The notes under the pieces are model-generated. The model was not told the origin of the DNA. It saw nothing but the letters and a program-made list of their open reading frames with translations, and ran no database searches. Positions 19,669-22,229 of a DNA stretch of 50,771 bases are shown here, piece after piece. Origin of the DNA: Candidatus Pacearchaeota archaeon (GTDB lineage Archaea; Nanobdellota; Nanobdellia; Pacearchaeales; GW2011-AR1); assembly GCA_002688015.1 (NCBI GenBank), contig NZBT01000012.1, positions 1 to 50,771 of the forward strand, in the 5' to 3' direction. The first letter of the stretch is position 1, and each line of letters starts with the position of its first letter. A program made the position numbers and the translations under genes.

Positions 19669-19783
19669 GGTTTCATTAGATAAAAGTAGTATATAAAATT
19701 TATTGGGAGTTTTTTATCTTTTTGAGTGATAACATTTTGATGAGTAGATAAACTTAAAAAGCAAAATTAACAAGTAGATTTAT

Positions 19784-19800
19784 GCCCTGGTAGTTTAGTG
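19784..19800 (+). repeat. 5' fragment of tRNA-Asp (17 nt)
   Basis: GCCCTGGTAGTTTAGTG is identical to nt 1-17 of the intact tRNA-Asp at 20606; TATA-like AACTTAAAAAG lies ~25-30 nt upstream. Confidence 0.8.
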
Positions 19801-19816
19801 TGCCAACTTAAAAAAC

Positions 19817-20422
19817 TCAATATAAATTCCAATTAGAAATTTTATCTGAATATCCAATTATTACGTTTAAACCTTTTTTGATTAATCTTGGTTCATAAAG
19901 ATAAGCAGTTAATCTAGCATGTCCTTCTAGCACAACTTTTCTTGCCCTCTTATTCTTTGCAACTAATATAATCAATGGAATTTTCTTGTTTATTTTAATT
20001 ACCTTAACGATTTCATCAAAATTCTCCCAGTCTGCTTTTTTTATTTTCACACCGGATTTGATGTTTTTAACAGCGTCTTCTGGTTTTCTACTGTTTTTGG
20101 TAATCTTATTCCAATAATCCCAATTTATATATTTGATTTTTTTCAATTCCTTTTCGTTTAAGAACACCAGTTCCCATTTAATATCTGTAGGAAAGTTATG
20201 GAATATTCTTTCATTCGGGTATCCTCTGACTTCTCCAAGTAATTTTTTTCTATATTTGTTGTCTTTAACAATATCAAAATTCGGTTTGATAATTATCTCT
20301 TTTGTTTTTTTATCTCTTTTCAAGGCCTTTTTAATTCTTTTAGAAAATCTTGGTGAATCTATTTCGGCTCTTAAGAATTCCCCAATCATGATATTTTTAG
20401 TTATTTTTTTTATTAGTTTCAT
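19817..20422 (-). CDS. hypothetical protein with ParB-like features
   Basis: IPLIILVAKNKRARKVVLEGHARLTAYLYEP resembles the ParB GHxRxxA motif. Confidence 0.6.
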   Translation of the reverse strand: MKLIKKITKNIMIGEFLRAEIDSPRFSKRIKKALKRDKKTKEIIIKPNFDIVKDNKYRKKLLGEVRGYPNERIFHNFPTDIKWELVFLNEKELKKIKYINWDYWNKITKNSRKPEDAVKNIKSGVKIKKADWENFDEIVKVIKINKKIPLIILVAKNKRARKVVLEGHARLTAYLYEPRLIKKGLNVIIGYSDKISNWNLY

Positions 20423-20605
20423 TTCTTCCTCTTTTTAATCCAATGTAAAAGAAAAAAAGATATATAAAGCTAATTAAGGTTTCAAGAATAATATGTTCTT
20501 GAGTGAGAATGCTGGAACACAAAGATTTTAAAAGGCTTTTACGAATCCTATATTAGAGCTTAATAGAGAGGAATTATAACACTCTAAGAAGTTCACAAAT
20601 ACCAA

Positions 20606-20677
20606 GCCCTGGTAGTTTAGTGGCTAGAACACGGCCCTGTCGCGGCCGAGGTCCGAGTTCGATTCTCGGTCAGGGCG
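20606..20677 (+). tRNA. tRNA-Asp(GTC)
   Basis: Acceptor GCCCTGG/TCAGGGC, anticodon arm CGGCC-CTGTCGC-GGCCG (GTC), T arm CCGAG-TTCGATT-CTCGG, discriminator G. Confidence 0.95.
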
Positions 20678-20740
20678 TATTGTTTCTTTGGAGTGGTAAC
20701 AAATCAAAAGGTTTAAAAGTGATGTATTTGTAAAAAATTT

Positions 20741-21301
20741 ATGGAATTTGAATATGATCAAGAAGGGATATATAAACCTTTAAATCAGCTTTGTGATTTA
20801 AGAGTTGAATGTCCAGAGGAAGCTAGTCTGTTGTATTCTAGATTGAAAGAATCCCCATTAACAATAAGGCATTTGGTTGGTGATGAAATATCTGACCTTC
20901 CTAAACCCCATTTGGCTTGGTTTTCTGATCCTAATGTTTTTATGCAGGGATTTTCAGAGAGCGGTCTTACTGGCAATCTTGATTGTTTAATGTCTCCTAT
21001 TAACCCAATTGAGATTATGGTTGATTATGCAGAATGTGATCTTTCTTTGTATAGTTTTAATTCAGAAAGATGTAAAGGTTCGAAGGTTCCAGAATTTATT
21101 AGATATTTTGATAATGATTATGTTGTATTAAGATCTAAAGTAGGCACATTCTCATGCTTCAGTGAAAATGTTGGTTTACATGTTTTTTATCCAGATCATA
21201 ATAACATTCCAAGAGCAATTAGATTCTTTGGCGCAGAAAATTTACTGGACACTAAAGCTTATTTTATTAATGCTGAAGGGTCGGAAGAATATTTTAAATA
21301 A
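20741..21301 (+). CDS. hypothetical protein between intact tRNA-Asp and its 3' fragment
   Basis: 186-aa ORF with own GGTTTAAAAG promoter. Confidence 0.65.
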   Translation: MEFEYDQEGIYKPLNQLCDLRVECPEEASLLYSRLKESPLTIRHLVGDEISDLPKPHLAWFSDPNVFMQGFSESGLTGNLDCLMSPINPIEIMVDYAECDLSLYSFNSERCKGSKVPEFIRYFDNDYVVLRSKVGTFSCFSENVGLHVFYPDHNNIPRAIRFFGAENLLDTKAYFINAEGSEEYFK

Positions 21302-21331
21302 GATCTCCTTAAAAGTGCTACGCCCCGTTAC

Positions 21332-21347
21332 TCTCGGTCAGGGCGTA
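21332..21347 (+). repeat. tRNA-Asp 3'-end fragment, copy 1 (TCTCGGTCAGGGCGTA)
   Basis: 16-nt identity to 20664-20679. Confidence 0.85.
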
Positions 21348-21350
21348 CTT

Positions 21351-21385
21351 AGAGAATCGAATAATTTAAATAAGTAACATTCTCT
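21351..21385. repeat. inverted repeat AGAGAAT...ATTCTCT
   Basis: Perfect 7-bp arms between the two tRNA 3' fragments. Confidence 0.5.
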
Positions 21386-21392
21386 ACACGCA

Positions 21393-21406
21393 CTCGGTCA
21401 GGGCGT
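21393..21406 (+). repeat. tRNA-Asp 3'-end fragment, copy 2 (CTCGGTCAGGGCGT)
   Basis: 14-nt identity to the tRNA-Asp 3' end, 60 nt after copy 1. Confidence 0.8.
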
Positions 21407-21410
21407 TATA

Positions 21411-22229
21411 TTAAAATCTCATTTGTACGAAAGTTTTAGCATTACTATACCCTGTTCGGCGTTGAAGTTCTTTTTCACAAGCATTTTTTTTACTATTAAA
21501 TGTGTCTCCAATATTTCCAATAGGGTAGTTTTCTATTTTTGTTCCATATTCAAGGATTTGTTCAGCTATCATTATTAGTTCTTCTTCAAATGCTTGGAGA
21601 TCTAGCTGTGAGAAAGAATACTCTTTTGGTGTGTTGAGTTTTAGATAGTGGAAAACTGTCTTTTGAGGGATTAGGGAAGTCTTCTTATTAATAAGATAAT
21701 TGTAAAATAGTGCTTGCCTTTCGAAATCCTTAGATTGATTTACATTATTACTTGTTTTGTAATCTATTATTACATTTTCATTGCTTGACTTTTCTATTGC
21801 TTGGAGATCGATAATTCCCTTTATTCCTATTTTCATGTATTCATTTTCTATTAATGGGAATTGTATCATCTCTTCACAAACATGGTTTTCATGTAAATCC
21901 ACGATTTGTAATCCTTTGATTAGAGCCAGAAGATAATCTTGAGGATTTAGCAGTTCTCCTTTGATATCTTTATGATAGTTTAGATTTTTCTTTTCCCATT
22001 CAGTTAGTAGGAGAAGATATGCTTCATCCTTTGTAATTTGGTTTTCCGCATATTTTTCTAGGCAGTCATGAACGATATTTCCTGAGAGGCCGTAGCACAC
22101 TGGGACTTTTGTGTCGTCTGGAACCTTTGCGATGTATGTTAGATAGAATAATAGTGGGCTCTGGAAGAAGGTATTTAGGGATGATGGAGAAAGATTAAAT
22201 CTAATTTTATCCTCTTTTTTTGGAAACAT
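21411..22229 (-). CDS. PD-(D/E)XK nuclease superfamily (RecB/Cas4-like) protein
   Basis: LSPSSLNTFFQSPLLFYLTYI N-terminal motif, IKGIIDLQAIEKSSNENVIIDYKTS core motif. Confidence 0.75.
   Translation of the reverse strand: MFPKKEDKIRFNLSPSSLNTFFQSPLLFYLTYIAKVPDDTKVPVCYGLSGNIVHDCLEKYAENQITKDEAYLLLLTEWEKKNLNYHKDIKGELLNPQDYLLALIKGLQIVDLHENHVCEEMIQFPLIENEYMKIGIKGIIDLQAIEKSSNENVIIDYKTSNNVNQSKDFERQALFYNYLINKKTSLIPQKTVFHYLKLNTPKEYSFSQLDLQAFEEELIMIAEQILEYGTKIENYPIGNIGDTFNSKKNACEKELQRRTGYSNAKTFVQMRF

What the first reader, a model, noticed from the sequence alone, without database searches (positions are those of the whole stretch)
19784..21406. tRNA-Asp locus dissected into one intact gene plus a 5' fragment and two 3' fragments framing small genes
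The intact tRNA-Asp(GTC) lies at 20606-20677. A 17-nt exact copy of its 5' end sits at 19784-19800, and exact copies of its 3' end sit at 21332-21347 (16 nt) and 21393-21406 (14 nt). An ORF lies between the 5' fragment and the intact tRNA (19817-20422, minus strand), and another between the intact tRNA and the first 3' fragment (20741-21301, plus strand). tRNA 3' ends are established attB sites for tyrosine-recombinase elements. The nested arrangement suggests several small integrase-less cassettes inserted one after another.
Basis: partly seen in the sequence, partly recalled or inferred. Interest (0 to 1): 0.85.

Follow-up and report, generated by a model that had tools for sequence, protein, structure and literature searches.

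The report
tRNA-end duplications framing small inserts
In a group of tiny uncultured archaea, many tRNA genes carry small hairpin-rich or single-gene inserts at their 5' or 3' end, each bounded by an extra copy of that tRNA's own end; the window shows one such locus, and it points to an undescribed way of adding DNA at tRNA genes without breaking them.

Summary
The exact 17-nt 5' copy and the 16- and 14-nt 3' copies around tRNA-Asp are real and far beyond chance. Among 296 tRNA genes in 10 related genomes (Pacearchaeota family, plus one genome from another family of the same order), 39 carry a copy of their own 3' end downstream and 33 a copy of their own 5' end upstream. Wrong-side controls are 0 and 0. 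In two genomes more than half of the tRNA genes are affected. Most intervals are 28-198 nt, hairpin-rich and non-coding; six are 378-939 nt, and most of those hold one gene or a toxin-like pair. Unit families recur at different tRNAs and genera, with the bounding copy specific to the local tRNA. Orthologous empty sites exist, and 5' inserts sit between promoter and tRNA. 'Tyrosine-integrase cassettes' is not established: unit-rich G267 has one tyrosine recombinase, as has unit-free G011. Best explanation (0.5): insertion that duplicates the target tRNA end, enzyme unknown. Main rivals: tyrosine recombinase in trans, and template switching. No description was found in the papers searched.

The parts
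19753..19760 (+). TATA-like box of the original tRNA-Asp promoter, now in front of the 5' stub
   Evidence: sequence. In 34 tRNAs with 5' copies a box precedes the outer copy in 21 and the tRNA itself in 1; without 5' copies 177/270
19784..19800 (+). 5' stub: exact copy of tRNA-Asp nt 1-17
19801..20605 (.). 805-nt insert between 5' stub and intact tRNA
   Evidence: 5' side empty in G033
19817..20422 (-). orphan ORF, 201 aa, pointing away from the tRNA
   Evidence: no Pfam/PHROGs/NCBIfam hit; only marginal hits in 2 of 190 other family genomes
20606..20677 (+). intact tRNA-Asp(GTC)
   Evidence: ARAGORN, Rfam RF00005 62.5 bits
20678..21331 (.). 654-nt single-gene insert
   Evidence: no terminal inverted repeats
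20741..21301 (+). orphan ORF, 186 aa
   Evidence: no relative in 190 other family genomes, nor in GTDB or IMG/VR pattern scans, nor in plasmids
21332..21347 (+). 3' stub 1: exact copy of the last 14 nt of tRNA-Asp plus 2 downstream nt
21348..21392 (+). 45-nt hairpin unit with anti-T-arm GAGAATCGAA
   Evidence: ssDNA fold z -2.8
21393..21406 (+). 3' stub 2: exact copy of the last 13 nt of tRNA-Asp plus 1 downstream nt

Best explanation
The locus is one case of a lineage-wide insertion process aimed at the ends of tRNA genes. Short hairpin-rich units, and occasionally units with one or two genes, are inserted so that the segment from a mature tRNA end to the nearest arm (nt 1 to about 14 on the 5' side; about nt 54-63 to 73 on the 3' side) is duplicated. 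One copy completes the intact tRNA and the other is left as a stub beyond the insert. The copy comes from the target, not from the cargo, so any unit can land at any tRNA and the tRNA survives, much as a CRISPR repeat or a casposon target is duplicated by staggered cutting. Repeated rounds and tandem duplication give arrays. Shown: the copies, their side specificity, the recurring unit families, empty sites, and placement of 5' inserts between promoter and tRNA. Inferred: staggered cutting as the cause of duplication, a dedicated enzyme, and the order of events in the window. The enzyme is not identified.
For: Copies lie only on the correct side: 39/296 and 33/296 against 0 and 0. Outer boundaries fall at mature tRNA ends (3': mostly nt 73-75; 5': mostly nt -1 to 2), and 18 of 43 5' copies end exactly at nt 14. 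Empty vs filled tRNA-Lys(CTT): upstream gene at 71 vs 148 nt, insert 78 nt. A conserved unit family, with 8 of 11 covarying pairs in its terminal hairpin, sits at Glu, Asp, Ile, Leu, Gly, Ser, Gln, Ala, Asn and Pro tRNAs in several genera with tRNA-specific ends. 19 of its 23 model matches adjoin a tRNA or a tRNA-end copy, including the ends of two single-gene intervals in G410. A 3'-unit signature is found only in this family among 382 genomes of the phylum. Perfect hairpins are enriched 13.5 vs 1.7 per kb in 3' units.
Against: No enzyme was found: no Cas1 in the window genome (genome 82.7% complete) and no terminal inverted repeats. Duplication length varies from 12 to 28 nt, unlike a classical transposase, although decay explains part of this. 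About half of 3' units carry a complement of their own tRNA's arm (19/39 vs 7.8 expected), which a cargo-blind insertion does not predict. 5' units are only weakly structured (mean z -0.69).
Confidence: 0.5

Rival explanations
1. Tyrosine-recombinase cassettes. The tRNA end is attB, each insert carries a matching core, and the recombinase (XerA or a visiting integrase) acts in trans. The conserved structured unit would be an attC-like site at the end of single-gene cassettes.
For: In G410 a 401-aa integrase lies 67 nt after tRNA-Asp and heads an 11.6-kb element ending in a 12-nt tRNA-Asp core, followed by two single-gene intervals ending in the structured unit plus further tRNA-Asp copies. Many 3' copies begin in the T-loop or T-stem. 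Most cassette genes point away from the tRNA.
Against: Unit-rich G267 has one tyrosine recombinase, like unit-free G011; the window genome's only one is XerA-like, beside ribosomal-protein genes. A recombinase needs the cargo to carry the tRNA end, yet one unit family carries about ten different tRNA-specific ends. 5' insertions are about equally frequent. No donor was found in viral contigs.
Confidence: 0.22
2. Template switching or fold-back synthesis during replication or repair at structured tRNA genes. Jumps between tRNA genes through the shared T-loop or D-loop copy pieces of other tRNA flanks and leave duplicated ends and inverted pieces. No dedicated element is involved.
For: Units often contain the reverse complement of the local tRNA arm (3': 19/39 vs 7.8; 5': 14/41 vs 2.6). 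Perfect hairpins with tiny loops are enriched. Duplication lengths vary, and tandem near-identical units occur.
Against: A covarying unit family is conserved across genera. Gene-sized orphan inserts have no known local source. Boundaries are sharp at nt 14 and at mature tRNA ends. The signature is confined to one family among 382 genomes, although structured tRNA genes are universal.
Confidence: 0.2
3. Functional RNA: the outer tRNA ends and structured units are parts of the primary tRNA transcript that guide or regulate tRNA processing, and selection keeps them.
For: 5' units lie between promoter and tRNA (21/34 vs 1/34), and one unit family has a covarying hairpin.
Against: Most tRNAs in most genomes lack them. 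Orthologous tRNAs in one genus differ in presence and side. Stubs decay along their whole length. Some intervals hold orphan genes.
Confidence: 0.05
4. Chance or assembly artefact.
For: All data are from metagenome-assembled genomes.
Against: Wrong-side controls 0/296 and 0/296; shuffles; many independent assemblies and sampling sites.
Confidence: 0.01

Closest known systems
Tyrosine-integrase elements at tRNA genes (archaeal ICEs and proviruses; PMC9897764, PMC8371274)
   Same: tRNA-end target, intact tRNA kept, partial tRNA copy at the far end; one such element (11.6 kb, G410 tRNA-Asp) occurs in this family
   Different: here mostly 28-198 nt, no integrase, both tRNA ends, tandem arrays, one unit family at many tRNAs; the integrations reported in PMC9897764 are about 9-23 kb
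Casposons (PMC4046053)
   Same: target overlaps a tRNA 3' end, flanking target duplication
   Different: no Cas1 in the window genome, tiny cargo, no terminal inverted repeats in the window; 5' ends also used
CRISPR arrays
   Same: the target segment is duplicated with each insertion of unrelated cargo, giving repeat-spacer arrays (general knowledge)
   Different: the repeat is a tRNA end, inserts are structured and of very variable length, no Cas1 in the window genome
Integron gene cassettes / attC
   Same: single-gene intervals; in G410 two of them end in a structured site with sequence-variable, covarying stems
   Different: no integron integrase; anchor is a tRNA; most units lack a gene; core copy is tRNA-specific
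MITE / REP palindromic elements
   Same: small, hairpin-rich, non-coding, repeated families
   Different: no terminal inverted repeats at the window inserts; copies found almost only at tRNA genes
tRNA-Thr fragment and recombinase element in Caldiarchaeum (PMC3293823)
   Same: 5' tRNA fragment left beside an insert, explained by integration of a mobile element
   Different: one locus, 1.8-kb insert encoding a recombinase, linked to intron gain

Membership tests
Tyrosine-integrase element at tRNA attB | intact tRNA at one end and partial tRNA copy at the other | tested here: met
Tyrosine-integrase element at tRNA attB | integrase encoded in the element or by a related element in the genome | tested here: not met
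   only an XerA-like gene in the window genome; G267 likewise one recombinase; genome 82.7% complete
Tyrosine-integrase element at tRNA attB | excised circle with attP carrying the tRNA end | not testable with these tools
   needs reads
Casposon | Cas1-family integrase | tested here: not met
   (window genome only)
Casposon | terminal inverted repeats | tested here: not met
   no arms at the insert ends in the window
Casposon | target duplication at a tRNA 3' end | tested here: met
CRISPR array | cas1/cas2 with uniform repeats and spacers | tested here: not met
   intervals 28-939 nt
Integron cassette array | intI-type integrase | tested here: not met
   only an XerA-like recombinase in the window genome
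Integron cassette array | structured recombination site at the end of each gene cassette | tested here: inconclusive
   a structured unit ends two G410 intervals; no match in the window, nor, by reading, at the end of the G021 and G410 tRNA-Ser gene inserts
MITE | terminal inverted repeats and fixed-length target duplication | tested here: not met
Known structured RNA family (Rfam 15) | match to a covariance model | tested here: not met
   only tRNA, rRNA and group I intron hits over the cut-offs

The most novel reading that the evidence does not exclude
An undescribed insertion system in Pacearchaeota (and, rarely, other small-genome prokaryotes) uses tRNA ends as universal, regenerating insertion sites: it duplicates the local tRNA end and inserts any cargo, building CRISPR- or integron-like arrays of structured units and single genes on most tRNA genes of a genome.
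Probability: 0.4. Interest if true: 0.9.

Novelty: new variant of a known kind. Interest (0 to 1): 0.78.

Why it matters
If true, a minimal archaeal lineage has a way of adding DNA at essential genes without damaging them, which would give episymbionts with 0.5-1 Mb genomes protected sites for new genes. It also offers a natural experiment on how tRNA genes are invaded, split and duplicated, and a defined target (tRNA end plus structured unit) for finding a new integrase or a strong replication-error pathway.

Tried and rejected
Casposon/CRISPR origin by Cas1: absent in the window genome. Known RNA family: none. Cassette ORFs: no Pfam, PHROGs or NCBIfam family, no clear relatives; single-sequence structure models useless (pLDDT 31-32). 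Viral donors: signature and unit motifs absent from IMG/VR; five looser matches not followed up. Genome-wide dispersed repeats: rejected, unit families are almost all within 250 nt of a tRNA. The Flavobacteria matches are a conserved tRNA-Gly/tRNA-Leu pair without 3' copies. A 3'-side empty site for the window was not found: relatives of the downstream nuclease gene are not beside tRNA-Asp where checked. Literature gave no description; no preprints were held.

Full report
Observation. The tRNA-Asp(GTC) gene at 20606-20677 has an exact 17-nt copy of its 5' end at 19784-19800 and exact copies of its 3' end at 21332-21347 and 21393-21406. Chance is excluded: the 14-mer is expected 0.03 times in the window and no shuffle reached three. 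The intervals are 805 nt (201-aa ORF, minus), 654 nt (186-aa ORF, plus) and 45 nt. The 45-nt interval is a hairpin unit (ssDNA fold z -2.8 with its bounding copies) and holds GAGAATCGAA, the exact reverse complement of part of tRNA-Asp's own T-arm.

Identity of the organism. The window is contig 12 of a 592-kb, 82.7% complete genome. The name for the window's own organism is therefore inferred.

Not a single oddity. In the window's own genome a second tRNA, tRNA-Ser(TGA), has both a 5' copy (44 nt from the tRNA) and a 16-nt 3' copy 66 nt downstream. Neighbourhoods of tRNA genes were then taken from nine relatives. In 296 tRNA genes, copies of at least 12 nt of the gene's own 3' end lie downstream at 39 and upstream at 0; copies of the 5' end lie upstream at 33 and downstream at 0. 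By genome: G267 23/39, G410 20/38, G028 5/28, G030 3/30, G330 3/16, window genome 2/31, G002 2/33, G021 1/33, G036 (another family of the same order) 1/16, G011 0/32. These are lower bounds because decayed copies are missed.

Anatomy. Intervals are 28-198 nt except six: 378, 654, 695 and 844 nt (3') and 805 and 939 nt (5'). Outer boundaries lie at the mature tRNA termini; 18 of 43 5' copies end exactly at nt 14, and 3' copies begin between nt 50 and 65. 3' units are hairpin-rich (perfect stems of 6 or more: 13.5 per kb vs 1.7 per kb elsewhere) with many GNA triloops (62% vs 9% of triloops). 5' units are weaker in this respect. Units often contain the complement of the local tRNA's arm, more than of other tRNAs' arms (3': 19 vs 7.8 expected; 5': 14 vs 2.6). 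A TATA-like box stands in front of the outer 5' copy in 21 of 34 cases and in front of the tRNA in 1 of 34, against 177 of 270 for tRNAs without a 5' copy. The 5' insert therefore lies between the promoter and the tRNA.

Insertion, not loss. For tRNA-Lys(CTT) the same upstream gene lies 71 nt from the tRNA in G028 and 148 nt in G267, which has a 78-nt unit; the promoter region is conserved and abuts the outer copy. For the window, the same upstream gene lies 142 nt from an unsplit tRNA-Asp in G033 and 116 nt from the 5' stub here. That gene is only 30% identical, but gyrA is also in place at 66%. The two window ORFs are orphans: the 186-aa protein has no relative in 190 other genomes of the family, and the 201-aa protein only two marginal hits.

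Units move between tRNAs. A conserved unit family ('class III') of about 75-123 nt occurs at ten tRNA species in two genera (g29 and g22; a more diverged match occurs in a third, G019), with the bounding copy specific to each tRNA. Its terminal hairpin has compensatory changes at 8 of 11 pairs. A covariance model of its 3' half finds 23 matches in 1.46 Mb. 14 of them are the sequences the model was built from; of the 9 others, 5 adjoin a tRNA, so 19 of 23 adjoin a tRNA or a tRNA-end copy. The stretches searched are mostly tRNA neighbourhoods, so this is not a whole-genome rate. Other families recur within G267 and G410, almost all within 250 nt of a tRNA. The window has no class III match.

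Gene-bearing intervals. Besides the two in the window: G021 tRNA-Asp, a Peptidase_S51 gene; G410 tRNA-Ser, a weakly supported YoeB/ParE-like toxin plus a small winged-helix-like protein; G410 tRNA-Asp, an 11.6-kb element with a 401-aa tyrosine integrase ending in a 12-nt tRNA-Asp copy, then two single-gene intervals each ending in a class III unit and a tRNA-Asp copy. The last case is the best evidence for a link with integrases and for a cassette-like gene-plus-structured-site design.

Distribution. The signature T-arm, acceptor, linker, anti-T-arm occurs in 18 of 382 genomes of the phylum, all in the window's family; the reversed control pattern is absent. A three-part signature over all GTDB species gave 39 stretches, about 20 from Pacearchaeota/Nanoarchaeota. 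Units with a tRNA-end copy also occur in an Aenigmarchaeum, an Altiarchaeota and an unnamed bacterial record, which may be mis-binned; the Flavobacteria matches are false.

Mechanism. The main fact to explain is that one unit family carries different tRNA-specific ends. A site-specific recombinase would need every cassette to bring the right tRNA end. A staggered cut of the target would not; the duplication is then made from the target, as in CRISPR repeat duplication or casposon insertion. This favours insertion with target duplication (0.5). Against it: no enzyme found, no Cas1 in the window genome, variable duplication length. The tyrosine-recombinase model (0.22) gains from G410 but loses from G267 and G011, which have one recombinase each and opposite unit loads. 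Template switching (0.2) explains inverted arm copies and variable lengths but not conserved covarying units or orphan genes.

Order of events in the window (inference). The 45-nt unit was inserted at the tRNA 3' end; the 654-nt gene insert then landed between the tRNA and that unit; the 805-nt insert separated the tRNA from its promoter on the 5' side at an unknown time.

Limits. All genomes are metagenome-assembled and most are of different genera, so insertions cannot be dated. The survey covers tRNA neighbourhoods only. tRNA identities are from ARAGORN and some intron-bearing ones may be mislabelled. E-values of the covariance model are rough. No preprints were searched.

Noticed in passing
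L410:9542-20000 and L411:1-1193 (G410 contig 12: 9542-21193): Conventional 11.6-kb integrative element at tRNA-Asp: tyrosine integrase with zinc ribbon, AAA_25 ATPase, a putative C5-type DNA methyltransferase (by eye), ending in a 12-nt tRNA-Asp copy.
   Followed up: partly
L236/L202 (G405 contig 4): Two complete tRNA-Gln(CTG) genes about 0.9 kb apart with a 206-aa membrane-like protein gene between them; the first is followed by two identical 80-nt units in tandem.
   Followed up: partly
L232 (Altiarchaeota), L239 and L224 (Aenigmatarchaeota), L240 (unnamed bacterium), L227 (Parcubacteria): Similar tRNA 3'-end units outside Pacearchaeota; those of L240 and L227 resemble each other and contain motifs seen in Pacearchaeota units. 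Mis-binning not excluded.
   Followed up: partly
L073:8918-9259: Group I intron in the archaeal 23S rRNA gene of G028; group I introns in archaea are known (PMC6125680).
   Followed up: no
L324:3442-3496 and L133:3770-3828: Class III units in inverted orientation directly abutting tRNA-Gly and tRNA-Glu.
   Followed up: no
window 21411-22229: PD-(D/E)XK (RecB/Cas4-like) nuclease gene ending 4 nt after the last 3' stub; close relatives (55-72% identity) in eleven other family genomes, none beside tRNA-Asp where the flanks could be checked.
   Followed up: partly
L415-L419: Five viral-contig stretches with a T-arm followed by an anti-T-arm.
   Followed up: no
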